From an uncultured Sulfurovum sp. (GTDB lineage Bacteria > Campylobacterota > Campylobacteria > Campylobacterales > Sulfurovaceae), in NCBI GenBank assembly GCA_902727915.1, contig CACVAU010000047.1:1-27380 (forward strand): a DNA stretch of 27,380 nt, written 5' to 3'. Below the pieces are notes generated by a model that searched no databases, was not told the DNA's origin, and saw only the letters and a list, made by a program, of their open reading frames with translations. Positions 12,686-23,571 of the stretch are shown here, piece by piece. A program made the translations under genes and the position numbers. Position 1 is the stretch's first letter. The number at the start of each line of letters is the position of its first letter.

Positions 12686-13375
12686 CTATTTTAACCCAGC
12701 CATTGATTGAAAGTATGGGGTATAGACTCTTTCTGAAAAATTAAACAAGGAAAGATTGCTTTGTTTAAATCTTGCGTAGAAAGGTGTAATGGCAGAGTTT
12801 GGATTGGTTTTAAGTCCTGTACTCGTTATGATTTGTTTTGAAATAGGGTCAATCACTAAGAGTCTGTTTTCTGCAACAAGGAGTACCAGACCTATTTGAT
12901 GTTGTTTTGCAAAACGATTGAGAATATCCATATGCATTGTGGTTGCTCCTTCTTGCATGAAGTTTAAGGCAAAAGCATCAGGGTGAACCCAGGTACGTTT
13001 AAATTTTTTTATAATTTGCTGATAGGCTATTTGATTGGGTGCAATTACTAATGCATTGTTATAAAAGTTTCCAAAAATTACTTTATCACCAGCTGTTACA
13101 GGTGTTTTAATACTCGGAATATTTGAGTGTAATATGGCTGTGTAAGGGAGAATAGAAGCTTTACCATTGCCCAAAGAAATGGTTGAATGGGTGATGGCTG
13201 AGAGTCCATTGCCATAGTTATGAAGAATAATACCACTCATACCAGCTGGAATATTATTGTTCAGTTGAATGCTACCATTGTTAACTTTTTGTACGGAACT
13301 TTGCATACTATTTGGAAGAAAGTTTGCAAATAGTGTGGAGCCTGTAAGTAAAATAAAAAATAAAAATTTGTTCAT
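12686..13375 (-). CDS. PgbA N-terminal domain-like exported protein
   Basis: A 229-residue protein with a signal peptide (1-17, ending TLFA). The body resembles the N-terminal domain of the plasminogen-binding proteins PgbA/PgbB of Helicobacter and Campylobacter: SGIILHNYGNGLSAITHSTISL, a GDKVIFGNFYNNALVIAPN segment, then WVHPDAFALNFM. The family name comes from surface plasminogen binding in H. pylori, but the domain is widespread in free-living Campylobacterota and lacks the Lys-rich C-terminus here, so plasminogen binding should not be assumed. AAGGA precedes the ATG. It is the first gene of the operon with glcD- and yihY-like genes, behind a TATAAT box. Confidence 0.7.
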   Translation of the reverse strand: MNKFLFFILLTGSTLFANFLPNSMQSSVQKVNNGSIQLNNNIPAGMSGIILHNYGNGLSAITHSTISLGNGKASILPYTAILHSNIPSIKTPVTAGDKVIFGNFYNNALVIAPNQIAYQQIIKKFKRTWVHPDAFALNFMQEGATTMHMDILNRFAKQHQIGLVLLVAENRLLVIDPISKQIITSTGLKTNPNSAITPFYARFKQSNLSLFNFSERVYTPYFQSMAGLK

Positions 13376-14696: not shown

Positions 14697-16115
14697 TTAA
14701 AAATTTAAAGTAAATTTTGTTTCATCTTTGTGGCTTTCTACACTTAAATTACCATTAAATTCTTTTTCTATAATTAATTTAGCAATGTGTAGACCAATCC
14801 CATCACTGTTTTTTTTAGTTGAAAAATAAGGTTTAAAAATATGTTTTAAGTTTTTTTTATCAATACCTCCAGCATTGTCCTTGATATTGATATTTTGTGA
14901 ATTAATGCTGATATAAATAAATCGTTTTTCTTGAATTTCACGTATTTTGAATGCATCTTTAGCATTAGAGATTAGGGTTAAAAAGACCTGTTCTAATTCA
15001 TTTTTATTGCCAAAAAGGTTAAAATCTTCTTTCACGTTAATATCCAATGTTATCTCCTCGTCTTCTAAAAAACTTCGCGCAATGGTTTGACTATTCATCA
15101 GGGCTTCATGAACACTAAAATGATGTTTTATTTTAGAAGGGTTATAAAAGTTTCTAAAATCTTCAATGGTACTGGACATGTATTGGAGTTGATTGTTTAA
15201 TTTTTGAATAATATCTATTACTTTTTGGTTTTCTTTACTCTGACGTTTAATGTTCATTAGCCCAAAAGAGAAAATATTTAGAGGTTGTCGCCATTGATGT
15301 GCAATACTGGAGACCATTTCACCCATATTGGCTAAACGTGATTGTTGTAGCAGTAAGGCTTGTTGATTGTGATGTTCTTCTTCTAAAAGTTTAAATTTAT
15401 AAGCAATCGCCAAGGAGAGGGCAATTGATTCGACAGCAATGGCAATGTGAAAAAAAGGAAAAGCAATTTTAAAATAATCCAAAACACCAATATATTGTAA
15501 ACTTACGGTCATTAAGACAAAAGACCAGCCCAGAATAATTAAATAAAAAGGGGTATCTTTTTTTTCAATTGTTCGGTAAATTTCACTCAGTATAAAGAGT
15601 ATAGGAATAAAAATTGGAATAAATTTGAAAATAAGCATATGAGAAAAGAAGAGTAAAAAAAAGCTATCAAATAGTATTAAGACAACAATGATATTAATCA
15701 TGGGACGTAGTTTTTCTATTTGGTAGCGTTTAAAAAAGCTTTGTAAAAAGAGGATGGAAAAAAAGAGCATAAGCAGTTGTGAAAAGTCAAAAAGCATCAA
15801 ACTTTTGAGATTAAAGAGTGTATCAAAAGGGCTAATATGTAGGGAATCTAAATTCATTAAAAAGAAAAAAGTTGAAAGTTGTGCTAAGGCATAGTACAGA
15901 TATTCTTGATGTTTTACATAAACATAGAGGGCTAAGTTATAGATAGCAGCTGAAATAATTATCCCAAAACAGATGTTAGCTACCATAAATGGTAACAAAT
16001 CATAATGGTAAAGTGTTTGGGTATTTGTTGGAAAGTGTGCGTCATAAAAATAGTTGATGGCAATAAACAGATAGAGTGTTATTAAAAAAAGTTTAAAAGC
16101 AATTACTTTATCCAT
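14697..16115 (-). CDS. Membrane sensor histidine kinase (7TM-DISM-like)
   Basis: A 472-residue two-component kinase. A first membrane helix (about 6-22) and a short extracytoplasmic loop of about 20 residues are followed by seven hydrophobic helices (to about residue 243) that resemble the 7TM-DISM sensor region, then a coiled coil. The dimerisation/phosphoacceptor motif QQSRLANMGEMVSSIAHQWRQPL carries His273. The ATPase domain has an N box (LISNAKDAF), G1 box (DNAGGID), F box (IFKPYFSTK) and G2 box (GIGLHIAKL). The large DISMED2 periplasmic domain common in this class is missing. The start at 16113-16115 overlaps the response regulator stop by eight bases; an ATG at 16148 is an alternative. 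It pairs with the adjacent regulator. Confidence 0.9.
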   Translation of the reverse strand: MDKVIAFKLFLITLYLFIAINYFYDAHFPTNTQTLYHYDLLPFMVANICFGIIISAAIYNLALYVYVKHQEYLYYALAQLSTFFFLMNLDSLHISPFDTLFNLKSLMLFDFSQLLMLFFSILFLQSFFKRYQIEKLRPMINIIVVLILFDSFFLLFFSHMLIFKFIPIFIPILFILSEIYRTIEKKDTPFYLIILGWSFVLMTVSLQYIGVLDYFKIAFPFFHIAIAVESIALSLAIAYKFKLLEEEHHNQQALLLQQSRLANMGEMVSSIAHQWRQPLNIFSFGLMNIKRQSKENQKVIDIIQKLNNQLQYMSSTIEDFRNFYNPSKIKHHFSVHEALMNSQTIARSFLEDEEITLDINVKEDFNLFGNKNELEQVFLTLISNAKDAFKIREIQEKRFIYISINSQNINIKDNAGGIDKKNLKHIFKPYFSTKKNSDGIGLHIAKLIIEKEFNGNLSVESHKDETKFTLNF

Positions 16116-16791
16116 CAATGTTGATTTTATACCCTGTTTTTGAGACATTTTCAATAATGTTTTTGTCAATAATTTTTCGTAAATCATAGACTAAGGAACG
16201 TAAGGCAGAATCACTCATGATTTTGTCTTTCCAAACATGGTATTGTATTTTTTCATAAGAGACAGATTGTTGTGCATGTTGGAGTAAAAGGTAAAGAAAG
16301 TCTGTCTGTTTTTTACTTAGGGGAATGATGTTGTCATCTTTGGTTAAAACCTTGTTAAACATCTCAAAATGATATATTTTTGTTAATTGTATGTTTGTTC
16401 CATAGCTATAATTGAGGTTTTCAAAGGCAGATATTAAGGCTTCTTGTAATTTTTTTTCATCAATGGGTTTAAGCAAATATTTTACCAATTGTAACTCTAC
16501 AGCTTCTAAAAGGTATTCGGTATCCGTGTAAGCTGTTGTGATAATAATGGGTATTTTCTTATTTTCTTGACGTATTTTTCGTGTTAATTCTAAACCATTC
16601 TTTTTTGGCATTTTAATATCAGTAATGATAATATCAGGAGCATATAAGAGATAGTGTTCTAGTGCTTGGACACCATCTTTAGCTACATAAATTTTATTGA
16701 AATAATCTGTGAGGTATTCTAAAACCATTTCACGTATAAATTCATCATCTTCACAATAGAGTAAGTTGTAGTTTGTTTTTTTTAAAATAAT
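16108..16791 (-). CDS. OmpR/PhoB-family response regulator, probable ATT start
   Basis: A 227-residue regulator with a receiver domain (about 1-120) and a winged-helix DNA-binding domain (about 140-227). The receiver has the acidic pair Asp15-Asp16 in LLYCEDDEFIREMV, phospho-acceptor Asp58 in DIIITDIKMP, Thr85/86 and Lys108 (KYLLKP). The first ATG in frame (16726-16728) would delete the acidic pair. The frame stays open upstream to a stop at 16810, and no ATG, GTG or TTG lies in any frame between the AAAGGGG at 16798-16804 and the receiver. I therefore place the start at the ATT at 16789-16791, six bases after that site. It overlaps the kinase gene by eight bases. It probably regulates the divergent lipoprotein genes. 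Confidence 0.85.
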   Translation of the reverse strand: MILKKTNYNLLYCEDDEFIREMVLEYLTDYFNKIYVAKDGVQALEHYLLYAPDIIITDIKMPKKNGLELTRKIRQENKKIPIIITTAYTDTEYLLEAVELQLVKYLLKPIDEKKLQEALISAFENLNYSYGTNIQLTKIYHFEMFNKVLTKDDNIIPLSKKQTDFLYLLLQHAQQSVSYEKIQYHVWKDKIMSDSALRSLVYDLRKIIDKNIIENVSKTGYKINIDG

Positions 16792-16797
16792 TTGTAA

Positions 16798-16804
16798 CCC
16801 CTTT
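16798..16804 (-). promoter_or_regulatory. Ribosome binding site that sets the response regulator start
   Basis: AAAGGGG on the minus strand, six bases from the ATT at 16789-16791. It is the only strong Shine-Dalgarno sequence before the receiver domain and decides the start in favour of an unusual initiation codon. Confidence 0.6.
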
Positions 16805-16838
16805 AATCTTCAAAGAAAATATACAATAATAAATATTA

Positions 16839-16844
16839 ATTATA
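16839..16844 (-). promoter_or_regulatory. -10 box of the two-component operon
   Basis: TATAAT on the minus strand in CGTTTATAATTAATA, 47 bases before the proposed ATT start. Confidence 0.5.
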
Positions 16845-16878
16845 AACGAATGTGATAAAGTTTAAAAATATTATTTTT

Positions 16879-16906
16879 TATACTTTTTATATGTTTTTTC
16901 TATACT
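16879..16906 (+). promoter_or_regulatory. Repeated TATACT boxes before the lipoprotein pair
   Basis: TATACTTTTT occurs at 16879-16888 and again at 16901-16910, exactly 22 bp apart, with a related TATATGTTTTTT between them. Either copy can serve as a -10 box. OmpR-type regulators bind direct repeats on one DNA face, so the 22-bp period could also be a binding site for the divergently encoded regulator; that is inference. Confidence 0.4.
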
Positions 16907-16953
16907 TTTTTTAGCTATGTTATTTGTCTAAAAGGTTATTAAGAGGAGTTTTT

Positions 16954-18318
16954 TTGTTCAAGAAAAGTTTAATTTATGGATTAGTATTGTTATTATTTGT
17001 GGCTTGTGGTACGGAGCATACAGATAAGACCCTAGTGGAAGAAAACAAGAGTATTATTTTTCCTAAAATTTTGAGTGTTAGCTTACCTCTCAAATTAGAA
17101 GCTAATCGTGAGATGTTAACAGAGTATAGTACTAAAAGTTATGATTATGAAACCATGCAATCACAAATTATTAAGTATCGTGATTCAAGTGAATTATTGA
17201 CATTTAATTTGGGATTGATTTCTAAAGTATTACCCTCTATTAGTCAACGCTGTGATGAACAGTTTTTAGAACAAAATTGTACTTTAGGAAGCAATATATT
17301 AGCGTTAAAGTTGAGTCGAGCAGAATTGAGAGCCTTAAAAAAGTTTCATGGGGTATTGGATTTTACATGGGATGTCAATGTTTCCCTTAATTTAGGAGAA
17401 GTCAAGTTTTTTCAGTCTAAAGAAGCCAATGAAACATCGTATTATCTTCAGGTAGACTTACTTCCTTTGTATGCTTCTTTATTGGGAGAAGCTTATGAAA
17501 GCTTTTACAATGAACAGTTAAGAAAATGGACACAATCTATTTATTGGCTTGAAGATAATCAAAGTGTGCAAAGTAGATTATCTACAGAGACCAATAGCTC
17601 CAAGAGGCAACTATTGTTAGAATATTCTAAGAGTAATAATCAAGAAACCCTAGAAGCGAATGAAGTTTATACAGATGTTAGCAGTGATATAAGAGATAAC
17701 TTTACTTTTATAAAAACAAATGATAGTCAAAATACTTATATATTTAAACATAATAGCAGTTTGTATTTCTCTAGTGAATTGGAGTATTATGATTCAGAGC
17801 ATTTGATGACCTATAATTATGGAAATATATCAGATGAGCTAGGGTTTCATGTGAAGAATAATGGCAAGGATAATAGTCAAAACATTGTTTTTTTTGATAT
17901 GAATGGTAGTGAATTAGGATCTTATGGTTGTGGTGCATATGATGAATGTAGTTTAACTGATAAATCTTCATGGAGTTATGGTTCAGAAAAGGAAGAGAAC
18001 GCTACGCGTTTAGATGAAAAACTAGCAGTAAACCTTTATAATTTAACAGCTATTAATCATAGCTTAGAAGAGGGTGATTATTTACTAATACCCCAAACGT
18101 CAATAAAGAAACCCATTAACATAAATCAAAGTGTTGGTTTTCTTTGGGTTTTTAAAGAGAAACTTTATGCTGTCTTATATGATAGTTCGTATGTGACGCA
18201 ATTGGAGAATTTGAAACTTTTTAAAAGGGTAAATTTTGTGGATAGCCAGAGTATTTATAAAGAAATAGCACAACAAGATTCTCCTACTTTAACAGTTGAA
18301 ACAGAGATATTACAATGA
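16954..18318 (+). CDS. Lipoprotein of unknown function, paralogue of the next gene
   Basis: A 454-residue predicted lipoprotein; I recognise no known family. The start is taken as the TTG at 16954 because AAGAGGAG lies five bases before it and the product then begins MFKKSLIYGLVLLLFVAC, a compact lipoprotein signal with Cys18. A longer frame opens at a TTG at 16924 without support. The rest is hydrophilic, rich in Ser, Asn, Tyr and Glu, with no membrane segment. It shares ordered blocks with the next gene: W-x-EDN-x-x-V near residue 200, a FFDMNGSELGSYGCGAYDEC block, a SLEEGDYLLIP block and WVFKEKLYAVLYDSS near the end. It overlaps that gene by four bases (ATGA) and diverges from a two-component system that may control it. 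Confidence 0.8.
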   Translation: MFKKSLIYGLVLLLFVACGTEHTDKTLVEENKSIIFPKILSVSLPLKLEANREMLTEYSTKSYDYETMQSQIIKYRDSSELLTFNLGLISKVLPSISQRCDEQFLEQNCTLGSNILALKLSRAELRALKKFHGVLDFTWDVNVSLNLGEVKFFQSKEANETSYYLQVDLLPLYASLLGEAYESFYNEQLRKWTQSIYWLEDNQSVQSRLSTETNSSKRQLLLEYSKSNNQETLEANEVYTDVSSDIRDNFTFIKTNDSQNTYIFKHNSSLYFSSELEYYDSEHLMTYNYGNISDELGFHVKNNGKDNSQNIVFFDMNGSELGSYGCGAYDECSLTDKSSWSYGSEKEENATRLDEKLAVNLYNLTAINHSLEEGDYLLIPQTSIKKPININQSVGFLWVFKEKLYAVLYDSSYVTQLENLKLFKRVNFVDSQSIYKEIAQQDSPTLTVETEILQ

Positions 18319-19757
18319 GAGAAATAGGATTAATTTTTTTCGGAATAGGGTTGATTATTTTTGGTTGTGGGGTACAAAACAATCCTCCAAAAAAGGAAAC
18401 TGTTTTGATACCTGAAAAGATTGCTGTGGAAATTCCTAAAGCATTTACAGAGCCAAGTGTTCAATATATACAAAAGACGCAAACGACTAAACATTCAAAA
18501 ATAGAAGTTGAGCCTCATGGAGGAATTTCAGAGGGCTATCAACGATTAGTGACGAATACTTTGGTAATTGAGGAGCTTATTAAGCGTATTAAATTTAATA
18601 TTATTCTTGAAAATACTGTCATGCCAGAGATCCAGAAGCTTTGTGAATCTGTTCCTCTTAATGTGGTTTGTACTATTCCAAGTAATAGTGTTGAGTTGAA
18701 TGTTACGGAAGCTTTAATTAGTGAATATGAAAAACTTTACCCTAAAGCATTTGACATTAATGAAGAAGTAGTTGGTAAAACCATTTCGTTTGGCTTAATG
18801 GAATTTGTACGTTATGACAATAATCAAAGTTATCAATATGCACTTAATGCAAATTTAACAGAAATTTATAATCAGCTTTACACCAAAGCATATATTTTTG
18901 ATACCAATTATAAACAGCTCATTCAAAATGTACAATGGTCAGAAGATAACCATACGGTACTCTCTACTTTAGATACAGGTTATGAAGAGAAAATTAGTGA
19001 ATATCCATGGACATTGCATTATAAAAAAGCACCAAGTATAGAAGAAACCATGCATCTTTTTCATAAAAGCTTGGTTGCCAAACCTGAACAGTCCTTGATG
19101 CTGAACTTTGATTTAACGACCAAAGAAGATGAAAATAAAACCACCATATTTAAAATGAATGATATTCAAGAAACTTTCTCTTTTGATTCGCTTTCATATT
19201 ATACACTCTCTTCGTATGGAGAGTTAAATCAGGCACAAGGTTTTGAACGTTATAGTCGAAATGAATATGATAATATCTATGGAGATACTAAATACCGACA
19301 AGATGAGGTTTTTGATGTCAATGGAACAAATATTGCCTCAAGTTACTGTTCTGATAGTGAGTATGATGAGTGTGCGCTTTATGATAGATCCACTTGGTAT
19401 ATTGATAGCAATGATAGTTCTCTTTTTGAACCTTTTAAAGATATTGGTTTTAATGAATTAAAAATTACAGGAGGGAATTTAGAAGAGGGCGAATACTTTT
19501 TAATGAAGCCTGATTTTAATCTTAGTAACCCTAGCGCTCAAGAGGTTTTAGCACAAAATATAGGAAGTTTTTTAGTTTTTAAGGAATCTCGACAAGGCGC
19601 AATATATGATAGTAGTTTATTGGAAAGCTTAAATGATTTACCGATTTTATATGCTAAATACAATCAAGTTTTAAAGGTACCTTTAGTGTCACGAGAAGTG
19701 CAACTTTTTGAGAAAGTAAAGGCTTCCGATACTCCTGAATTAACGCTTTATCCCTAA
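18315..19757 (+). CDS. Lipoprotein of unknown function, tandem paralogue
   Basis: A 480-residue predicted lipoprotein with a signal ending IIFGC (Cys18), then a Pro/Lys-rich linker and a large hydrophilic domain. It is homologous to the preceding protein over most of its length. Shared blocks are W-S-EDN-HTVLSTL (about residue 215), VFDVNGTNIASSYC...YDECALYDRSTW, NLEEGEYFLMKP, SFLVFKESRQGAIYDSSLLESL and a C-terminal SDTPELTLYP. Two cysteine pairs (KLCES...VVC and YC...DEC) have counterparts in the paralogue, suggesting disulfides in the periplasm. Its ATG overlaps the upstream stop, so the two are translated together and may form a hetero-complex; that is inference. A bidirectional hairpin follows. 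Confidence 0.8.
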   Translation: MREIGLIFFGIGLIIFGCGVQNNPPKKETVLIPEKIAVEIPKAFTEPSVQYIQKTQTTKHSKIEVEPHGGISEGYQRLVTNTLVIEELIKRIKFNIILENTVMPEIQKLCESVPLNVVCTIPSNSVELNVTEALISEYEKLYPKAFDINEEVVGKTISFGLMEFVRYDNNQSYQYALNANLTEIYNQLYTKAYIFDTNYKQLIQNVQWSEDNHTVLSTLDTGYEEKISEYPWTLHYKKAPSIEETMHLFHKSLVAKPEQSLMLNFDLTTKEDENKTTIFKMNDIQETFSFDSLSYYTLSSYGELNQAQGFERYSRNEYDNIYGDTKYRQDEVFDVNGTNIASSYCSDSEYDECALYDRSTWYIDSNDSSLFEPFKDIGFNELKITGGNLEEGEYFLMKPDFNLSNPSAQEVLAQNIGSFLVFKESRQGAIYDSSLLESLNDLPILYAKYNQVLKVPLVSREVQLFEKVKASDTPELTLYP

Positions 19758-22537: not shown

Positions 22538-22578
22538 CCTCAATTTTAAAAATTAAATCCATGTTAAGGAAAAACCAA

Positions 22579-23571
22579 ATGAATAAAGAACATCAGTTAG
22601 CTATCGGAGATAAACTTGCTGGTCATTATGAGATTATTAGTATTGTAGGTGAAGATGAATTTGAAATTCTTTATTTGGTCAAAGATTTACATATGGCAGA
22701 GCAAAAGTTTGTGTTGAAAGAACTTTTTTTAAATGACTATTCTTCTCGTAATGAAGATAAAAGTGTACAGGTAATGGCAAAGTCACAAGAAGTATTTAGG
22801 CAGACAAAAAAAGATATTATTGCTGAAGTAGAACATTTAAAAAAGGCTCAACGTAATGAGGGAGCAAAATATTATGGTTATTTTGAAGAGAATGCCACAG
22901 TCTATACCATTATGGAGTTTGTGAATAGTTCAGACTTTTCTACTTATCTTAAAGCCCCTTCTTCCATATACAGCAATGCAGTGAGTACTGAAGCAGAGGT
23001 ATTTGAACCTAAAGATCTTAATGAATCTATTCCTGTTGACGAACCCACTCCGAAAGAAAAACCTAAATCTAAAATATTTTTAAAAATTTTAATTGTGATG
23101 GTTGTCATATTTTTAGCACTTTTTTATTACAGTTATAACATGATTGAAGAAGAGAAAGAGAGAGTTAAAAATAAAACAGTAGCCGTTGTTGTTAGCACGG
23201 AACCCATGAGACATCCCCCTTTAGAGGATAAACAAGCAAGAGAAGAGGCAAAAAAGTTTGAAGAAGAGGCGAATCTTTCTTCAACAATGAAAGAAAAGAG
23301 TGTTCAAGTAAAGCCAGAAGGAGCAAGTTATGTGGCAACAGGGGAAATGGAGGAAGGCGTTGATACGGTTTCTGAAGAACTTGAAACACCCAGTGTGATT
23401 ACAGAAGATTTATCCAACTTACCAATGGCAAAAACTTATGATTTAGAAATTTTGCCCACAGAAGTTTCTCCGACAGAAGTACCTGTAGTGCCTTATGAAC
23501 CAAATATTGTTGAAACCTCTATCCCTCAAAGTGAAGTTCCAAATCTTTCTTTGGGAACGAGAATTAATTAA
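22579..23571 (+). CDS. Kinase N-lobe fused to a membrane segment (C-lobe absent)
   Basis: A 330-residue protein whose first 125 residues match the N-lobe of bacterial Hanks-type Ser/Thr kinases: YEIISIVGEDEFEILYLVKD (17-36, degenerate glycine loop), the VAIK-type Lys47 in FVLKEL, a helix C region with Glu83/Glu85, and the hinge YTIMEFV (109-115). It ends there. No HRD, DFG or any C-lobe sequence follows. Instead there is a linker, a membrane helix (about 166-186), a charged coiled segment and a Glu/Pro/Val-rich low-complexity extracytoplasmic tail. It cannot be an active kinase of the known type. The start at 22579 is chosen because AAGGA precedes it; an ATG at 22561 overlaps that site. The frame is uninterrupted, so the architecture looks real. 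Confidence 0.78.
   Translation: MNKEHQLAIGDKLAGHYEIISIVGEDEFEILYLVKDLHMAEQKFVLKELFLNDYSSRNEDKSVQVMAKSQEVFRQTKKDIIAEVEHLKKAQRNEGAKYYGYFEENATVYTIMEFVNSSDFSTYLKAPSSIYSNAVSTEAEVFEPKDLNESIPVDEPTPKEKPKSKIFLKILIVMVVIFLALFYYSYNMIEEEKERVKNKTVAVVVSTEPMRHPPLEDKQAREEAKKFEEEANLSSTMKEKSVQVKPEGASYVATGEMEEGVDTVSEELETPSVITEDLSNLPMAKTYDLEILPTEVSPTEVPVVPYEPNIVETSIPQSEVPNLSLGTRIN

What the first reader, a model, noticed from the sequence alone, without database searches (positions are those of the whole stretch)
16108..19757. Candidate undescribed system: paralogous lipoprotein pair facing a two-component system
Two large co-translated lipoproteins (454 and 480 residues, ATGA overlap) are diverged paralogues sharing at least five blocks and cysteine pairs, and match no family I know. 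They are divergent from a kinase lacking a sensor domain and its OmpR-type regulator. A coherent reading is an envelope sensor or scaffold in which a heterodimer of lipoproteins is both regulated by, and perhaps signals to, the kinase.
Basis: partly seen in the sequence, partly recalled or inferred. Interest (0 to 1): 0.7.

Follow-up and report, generated by a model that had tools for sequence, protein, structure and literature searches.

The report
Lipoproteins paired with sensorless 7TM kinase
In a Sulfurovum-like bacterium two related envelope lipoproteins of no known family sit opposite a two-component system whose membrane kinase has no outside sensing domain, and in relatives this kinase type keeps a lipoprotein gene beside it, so it looks like an undescribed way for these cells to manage their surface.

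Summary
Lipoproteins A (454 aa) and B (480 aa) overlap by ATGA, are paralogues (26% identity, E 2e-28) and match no Pfam, NCBIfam or PDB sequence. They face an OmpR-type regulator and a kinase that does have a 7TMR-DISM membrane domain; it lacks only a folded periplasmic one. In relatives this is a cassette: of 37 clade kinases (window, 18 in 175 family genomes, 18 more in 398 order genomes) 33 have a lipoprotein gene nearby; 4 lie at contig ends. The lipoproteins belong to several unrelated families, and only 3 of 17 window-family cassettes carry two full-length ones, so the heterodimer is not the core. Six homologues lack the system beside them. An 11-bp direct-repeat operator recurs: 31 exact sites in 19 cassette genomes against 3 in 58 without; 21 at cassettes, 10 beside envelope or surface genes. 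The window's version is degenerate. Best reading: a surface-remodelling system whose regulator drives its lipoproteins, one of which may feed back on the kinase; contact is inferred. One lipoprotein in 24 of 25 clade I cassettes has M or Q at Cys+3. New variant of the accessory-lipoprotein theme.

The parts
14697..16115 (-). Histidine kinase, 472 aa: N-terminal helix, loop of about 15-20 residues, 7TMR-DISM_7TM module, HisKA-like and HATPase_c; no folded periplasmic domain
   Evidence: Pfam PF07695 E 6.6e-20, PF02518 E 7.2e-12, PF00512 E 4e-5 (below its cut-off); start by overlap with regulator stop; hydropathy
16108..16788 (-). OmpR/PhoB-type response regulator, about 226 aa, probable ATT start
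   Evidence: PF00072 E 2.1e-22, PF00486 E 6.2e-12; N-terminus by comparison with L001 and L002
16874..16910 (.). T-rich triple repeat at 11-bp spacing upstream of A; degenerate form of the operator of relatives
   Evidence: Triple score at lag 11 is 26 against a maximum of 22 in 60 shuffles, but lag 13 also beats all 60 and the two-copy score at lag 11 does not stand out; two overlapping operator matches with 3 mismatches at 16880 and 16891, of 6 such places in the whole window
16954..18318 (+). Lipoprotein A, 454 aa, TTG start, lipobox VACGTEH
   Evidence: no Pfam or NCBIfam match near cut-off
18315..19757 (+). Lipoprotein B, 480 aa, lipobox FGCGVQNNP; carries the C-G-x-[MQ] signature
   Evidence: AlphaFold2 model pLDDT 87.0, pTM 0.86

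Best explanation
A dedicated envelope-signalling cassette of Campylobacterales. The kinase is a 7TMR-DISM-type receptor without a folded periplasmic domain. Its OmpR-type partner binds 11-bp tandem repeats and controls its own divergent promoter region, the lipoprotein gene(s) beside it and, in relatives, surface genes elsewhere (DUF4214 and secreted beta-propeller proteins). Shown by comparison: the cassette, the missing domain, the shared operator. Inferred: that the regulator acts at these sites, and that one lipoprotein (the one with C-G-x-[MQ], B here) acts back on the kinase in place of the missing periplasmic domain, closing a feedback loop on the state of the cell surface.
For: Lipoprotein beside 33 of 37 clade kinases, 4 undecidable, against 2 of 16 longer relatives within about 1.5 kb. 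Several cassettes per genome, each with its own lipoprotein (four in bin170; three in G388). Same order in L001 with different flanks. All 17 window-family kinases have the 7TM module and none a DISMED match; nine longer relatives have 135-190 residues before it. Near-invariant intergenic block in 10 loci; exact operator 31 sites in 19 cassette genomes, 10 of them beside envelope or surface genes, against 3 sites in 58 genomes without the cassette. Kinase and lipoprotein distances correlate, r 0.85. Lipobox signature in 24 of 25 clade I cassettes, 0 of 39 other lipoproteins.
Against: No physical or transcript evidence. Lipoproteins of unrelated families serve related kinases, which suits outputs better than a fixed binding partner. 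Six homologues have no clade kinase beside them, and G174 has a pair but no clade kinase found. The window's own operator is weak and its subgroup has a half-site in only 2 of 5 regions. 6 of 19 cassette genomes have no exact operator. The kinase-lipoprotein correlation does not remove species history. Other short 7TM kinases (430-465 aa, 265-325 bits) exist whose neighbours I did not read.
Confidence: 0.6

Rival explanations
1. The lipoproteins are outputs only: the kinase senses a membrane or periplasmic signal with its own 7TM module, and the regulator switches on surface lipoproteins and S-layer-like proteins.
For: Lipoproteins differ in family between kinase lineages; some cassettes carry operons of three or more envelope genes, including a small barrel-like protein; the operator also stands before surface genes that can hardly be sensors.
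Against: Each cassette has its own lipoprotein even with several in one genome; one lipoprotein per clade I cassette keeps the C-G-x-[MQ] signature across two lipoprotein families; the 64-66 aa lipoproteins of L045 and L054 have hardly any domain to be an effector.
Confidence: 0.33
2. One reading: A and B form a heterodimer that is the envelope sensor or scaffold of the kinase.
For: Co-translated paralogous pairs in window, L001, L002 and L040; and two metagenome contig lengths (5551 and 6963) carry both an A and a B protein.
Against: 14 of 17 window-family cassettes do not have two full-length lipoproteins; unrelated lipoproteins elsewhere. No complex was modelled.
Confidence: 0.08
3. Chance neighbours or shared inheritance of a gene region without functional link.
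For: Five cassettes (L013, L042, L046, L047, L053) share a neighbouring cell-wall amidase gene, and four (L043, L044, L050, L075) the genes after the kinase, so part of the linkage is common descent.
Against: Flanks of window and L001 differ while the four genes stay together; orientation differs (divergent, convergent in L002, same strand in L124 and L129); the operator is shared across clades.
Confidence: 0.03

Closest known systems
QseE-QseG-QseF (enterobacterial two-component system with accessory lipoprotein)
   Same: A lipoprotein encoded with a kinase and regulator; QseG binds QseE's periplasmic part and activates it (PMC12691602, abstract and section 9 read).
   Different: QseE has a four-helix periplasmic sensor domain that QseG grips; this kinase has none and is 7TM. 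QseF acts at sigma-54 promoters (abstract start of PMC6075780 in the listing); this regulator is OmpR-type. The lipoproteins show no sequence match.
NlpE-CpxA-CpxR
   Same: A lipoprotein signals to a kinase with an OmpR-type regulator; only a small N-terminal part of NlpE is needed, while it passes the inner membrane (PMC6538781, abstract and passages read).
   Different: No Pfam match of these lipoproteins to a known family. That nlpE is not encoded with cpxRA and that CpxA has a periplasmic domain is recalled.
7TMR-DISM receptors such as RgsP (with partner RgsM), RetS, LadS
   Same: 7TMR-DISM_7TM membrane module feeding a cytoplasmic signalling domain; RgsP works with a separate membrane-anchored cell-wall-binding partner (PMC6107284, passages read).
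   Different: RgsP keeps a periplasmic DISMED2 domain and is a cyclic-di-GMP enzyme; here that domain is absent and lipoprotein genes stand beside the kinase.
OmpR/PhoB family regulators
   Same: Receiver plus Trans_reg_C and tandem direct-repeat operators at 11-bp spacing in relatives.
   Different: Target genes are lipoproteins and surface proteins of unknown function; binding is not shown.

Membership tests
7TMR-DISM histidine kinases | 7TMR-DISM_7TM domain (PF07695) | tested here: met
   17 of 17 window-family kinases
7TMR-DISM histidine kinases | N-terminal extracytoplasmic DISMED1 or DISMED2 domain (common, not universal, in the family) | tested here: not met
   No such match in 17 of 17, and only about 15-20 residues between first helix and 7TM block in the kinases plotted. 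Pfam called none in 9 longer relatives either, although these have 135-190 residues there
7TMR-DISM histidine kinases | Cytoplasmic signalling output domain | tested here: met
   HATPase_c in 17 of 17, HisKA in 15 of 17 at E 0.001
OmpR/PhoB response regulators | Receiver domain followed by winged-helix Trans_reg_C | tested here: met
   PF00072 and PF00486 above cut-off
OmpR/PhoB response regulators | Binding to tandem direct repeats | not testable with these tools
   11-bp repeats are present in relatives, a weak form in the window; binding itself not tested
QseEGF accessory-lipoprotein system | Sigma-54 type regulator QseF | tested here: not met
   The regulator is receiver plus Trans_reg_C only
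QseEGF accessory-lipoprotein system | Lipoprotein directly binds and activates the kinase | not testable with these tools
   No complex modelled; only alignments or single proteins could be folded
NlpE-type sensor lipoproteins | Sequence match to a known lipoprotein family | tested here: not met
   15 A/B homologues scanned, no Pfam match better than E 0.014 and none to a lipoprotein family
NlpE-type sensor lipoproteins | Shared fold | tested here: inconclusive

The most novel reading that the evidence does not exclude
The kinase reads the membrane-proximal tail of a dedicated lipoprotein rather than a soluble ligand. Residues just after the acylated cysteine (C-G-x-[MQ], often C-G-V-M-N-N-P) mark the partner lipoprotein whatever domain follows, so the system reports lipoprotein processing, sorting or load at the inner membrane and adjusts the cell surface. 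The 64-66 aa lipoproteins of L045 and L054, little more than signal peptide and tail, would be minimal reporters.
Probability: 0.22. Interest if true: 0.82.

Novelty: new variant of a known kind. Interest (0 to 1): 0.6.

Why it matters
It is a recurring case of a 7TM kinase without a folded periplasmic domain that keeps a lipoprotein gene beside it, with several lipoprotein families to compare. That makes a general question testable: how such a kinase is told about the envelope, and whether a short lipoprotein tail can be the signal. It also gives a predicted operator and surface regulon (DUF4214 and beta-propeller proteins) in a widespread, little-studied group.

Tried and rejected
VIA rows to porins and OspA were taken as a common beta arrangement. 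No DISMED-type entry was seen among the rows shown, which excludes nothing. The C-terminal part was not folded alone (2 of 2 jobs used).

Peptidoglycan sensing: five cassettes lie next to a cell-wall amidase (two of these genes tested by Pfam, L013 and L053; the others by likeness of sequence), L013 also next to NamZ; the lipoproteins without the system of L048 and L041 lie near a lytic transglycosylase and a penicillin-binding protein. The amidase genes are convergent and look like one inherited neighbourhood. Kept as a weak lead.

RNA: nothing at gathering score; one sub-threshold microRNA match, E 0.76, rejected. In the intergenic regions, words of 8-12 with mismatches were no more shared than in shuffles; exact 7-mers and the alignment showed the operator.

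Limits of the counts. The genome searches scored at most 9 or 4 first-look candidates per genome, so members can be missed; assemblies may be incomplete. The Mantel test uses 15 of 17 cassettes (L012 broken, L054 cut) and does not remove species history. The Fisher value of 1e-16 for the lipobox signature is post hoc and ignores kinship; L040 was dropped because its kinase cannot be seen. My lipobox detector missed L002:111-1526 and the L132 lipoprotein; both were added by hand. L086 is not in that count; its lipobox reads C-G-G-S. Two of three dN/dS methods failed and dS was undefined. The 58 control genomes were not matched for base composition, and the neighbours of its 3 sites were not read.

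Weak order-level lipoprotein hits in G404, G432, G030 and G345 (E 5e-5 to 9e-4, N-terminal part only) were rejected; I read the first two, not the regions of the last two hits.
Full report
What is in the window. Lipoprotein A (TTG start 16954, 454 aa) and B (18315, 480 aa) share an ATGA overlap and diverge from an OmpR-type regulator and a kinase. A and B are paralogues: 26% identity, E 2e-28. The lipobox Cys and four more cysteines are invariant in 15 homologues; in a wider set of 37 only two of the four are. Neither matches Pfam or NCBIfam near cut-off or a PDB sequence (best E 0.069). Among about 5.8 billion proteins the searches gave 11 proteins for B and 4 for A, the window's own included; a profile of 37 rows added four more, P0017-P0020. 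The one with an organism name is uncultured Sulfurovum.

The kinase. It starts at 16115 inside the regulator's stop and carries 7TMR-DISM_7TM, HATPase_c and a HisKA match below cut-off. Hydropathy gives one N-terminal helix, a loop of about 15-20 residues, then the 7TM block; two longer relatives plotted have a signal peptide first, and in nine the 7TM match begins at residue 135-190. Pfam names no DISMED domain in those nine either. So the kinase is not without an input domain, but without a folded periplasmic one.

The cassette in relatives. A scan of genome contigs gave two named loci. L001 (uncultured Sulfurovum MAG) has the same four genes in the same order, and no other gene of its 21 kb matches the window. 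L002 (Sulfurovum sp. bin170) has two lipoproteins convergent to kinase and regulator; the same genome has three more cassettes, each with a lipoprotein. In 175 genomes of that family, 16 have a lipoprotein match at E 0.001 and 13 have clade kinases, 18 in all at E 1e-120. Of these 18, 16 have a lipoprotein nearby; 2 (L075, L076) end at a contig edge on the regulator side. Of the 16 lipoprotein genomes, 11 have the cassette, 4 (G165, G166, G167, G170) have only a lipoprotein without it, and G174 has a pair at a contig end with no clade kinase found in the genome.

Beyond the family. In 398 genomes sampled from the order, 18 further kinases score 544-723 bits; the next match is at 373 bits, and the matches just below are mostly proteins of 565-635 aa. 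Of these 18, 16 have a lipoprotein gene at the regulator; two of them on thinner evidence: L117 through a lipoprotein start cut by the contig end, L121 through another contig (L140) that carries the front of what looks like the same regulator, sharing 27 identical residues. Two (L126, L127) are cut. With the window: 33 of 37, 4 undecidable, none negative. In the first cassette of L128 a small barrel-like protein lies between; in L012 the lipoprotein is about 1.2 kb from the kinase and broken; the L129 kinase is broken. Control: 2 of 16 kinases of the longer group have a lipoprotein-like gene within the fetched flanks of about 1.5 kb; the cassette regions read were larger, but there the gene is usually the regulator's direct neighbour.

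Lipoprotein types. The kinase tree gives a clade I (support 0.92) with the window family and a 186-204 aa family, beside lineages next to operons with LVIVD-repeat and other lipoproteins. By BLAST the 186-204 aa family joins the window family only through the N-terminal region, as far as I could see by eye. Two full-length window-family lipoproteins occur in 3 of 17 cassettes (window, L001, L002), and in L040. L045 has a full-length lipoprotein downstream of the kinase and a 64-aa one divergent from the regulator; L054 has a matching 66-aa one and a lipoprotein cut by the contig end. The two short genes end alike (WYN), are 41% identical, with 56, 68 and 37% identity at codon positions 1, 2 and 3 and dN 0.475; dS could not be computed, which fits saturation, so purifying selection is likely.

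Operator. In 10 divergent intergenic regions 46 of 136 alignment columns are invariant, most within about 75 columns that hold TCTACACTTTT-TCTACATTTTT, an 11-bp direct repeat. A half-site within one mismatch is present in 9 of 9, 8 of 8 and 3 of 4 regions of three groups with different lipoproteins (shuffles 30-33%), 2 of 5 in the window's subgroup (23%), 1 of 2 and 0 of 1 in two small groups. The exact pattern ACAYTTTTTNNACAYTTTTT has 31 sites in 13 of 19 cassette genomes, none for the reversed pattern; in 58 family genomes without the cassette it has 3 sites in 3 genomes, the reversed pattern 1. By position 21 are at cassettes. The other 10: 4 before DUF4214 genes (G150 twice, G162, G169), 3 before beta-propeller proteins (PF09826 in two; the third by its shared KGWQLIG start), one each before a secreted subtilase and a lipoprotein, and one between a TolB-like gene (PD40 repeats; the name TolB is recalled) and an NlpC/P60 gene. 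In the window the best matches lie about 44 bp before A with 3 mismatches each, among 6 such places in 27 kb; the triple repeat at lag 11 beats 60 of 60 shuffles, but so does lag 13, and the two-copy score does not.

Lipobox signature. The DNA pattern for C-G-x-M-N-N-P was found 8 times in 398 and once in 175 genomes (sets overlap), each time in a lipoprotein next to a regulator of this family; the reversed control had 1 match. More loosely, M or Q at Cys+3 occurs in exactly one lipoprotein of 24 of 25 clade I cassettes and in 0 of 39 other lipoproteins of the loci scanned. In the window it is B, not A. The exception is L013. The count is post hoc and relatives are not independent.

Structure. 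With 37 rows AlphaFold2 gives pLDDT 87.0 and pTM 0.86 for B: helix 73-109, ten strands from 199 to 346 and an alpha/beta end; the conserved IPEKIAVEIP segment behind the tail is ordered. No convincing known fold.

Mechanism. Shown by comparison: linkage from the kinase side wherever testable, absence of the periplasmic domain, a shared operator at cassettes and surface genes. Inferred: the regulator controls lipoproteins and surface proteins; the signature lipoprotein acts back on the kinase. Precedents: QseG on QseE (PMC12691602, abstract and section 9), NlpE on CpxA, where an N-terminal part suffices while passing the inner membrane (PMC6538781, abstract and passages), RgsP with RgsM (PMC6107284, passages). 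The rival that the lipoproteins are outputs only stays at about one third.

Print status. No paper holds 7TMR-DISM with Sulfurovum, 7TMR with Campylobacterota or DUF4214 with Sulfurovum; four hold Sulfurovum, two-component, lipoprotein and histidine kinase (listing only), none by title about this. The library holds open-licence papers only.

Noticed in passing
L045:5444-5638 and L054:2431-2631: Lipoproteins of 64 and 66 aa with lipobox, tail and the P-x-x-I-x-x-x-I-P segment only, both ending WYN, divergent from the regulator.
   Followed up: partly
L171, L172, L173, L174, L148, L175, L170: Operator sites far from cassettes stand before DUF4214 genes of 719-910 aa and secreted beta-propeller proteins (about 820 aa where complete): a candidate surface regulon.
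   Followed up: partly
L013:141-2840, L042:6316-6546, L046:8986-11529, L047:4448-6915, L053:9095-9751: Five cassettes lie next to a cell-wall amidase gene, three of them also near a NamZ-like muramidase; convergent to the lipoprotein.
   Followed up: partly
L132:1014-2836 (G180): A third cassette of G180 whose kinase frame stops after 162 aa and whose end does not look like a kinase.
   Followed up: no
window 16786-16788: The regulator has no ATG, GTG or TTG at its expected start; ATT at 16788 fits the homologues.
   Followed up: partly
window 12686-13375: Match to the plasminogen-binding protein pgbA N-terminal family (PF15436, E 4.5e-40) in what seems an environmental bacterium.
   Followed up: no
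window 22561-23571: Protein with a weak partial protein-kinase match (E 5e-5), a membrane helix and a long acidic tail; may be a degenerate Ser/Thr kinase.
   Followed up: no
L118:8995-16619 (G388): Two neighbouring cassettes with near-identical regulator and kinase N-termini but different short lipoproteins: a recent duplication in which the lipoprotein differs.
   Followed up: no
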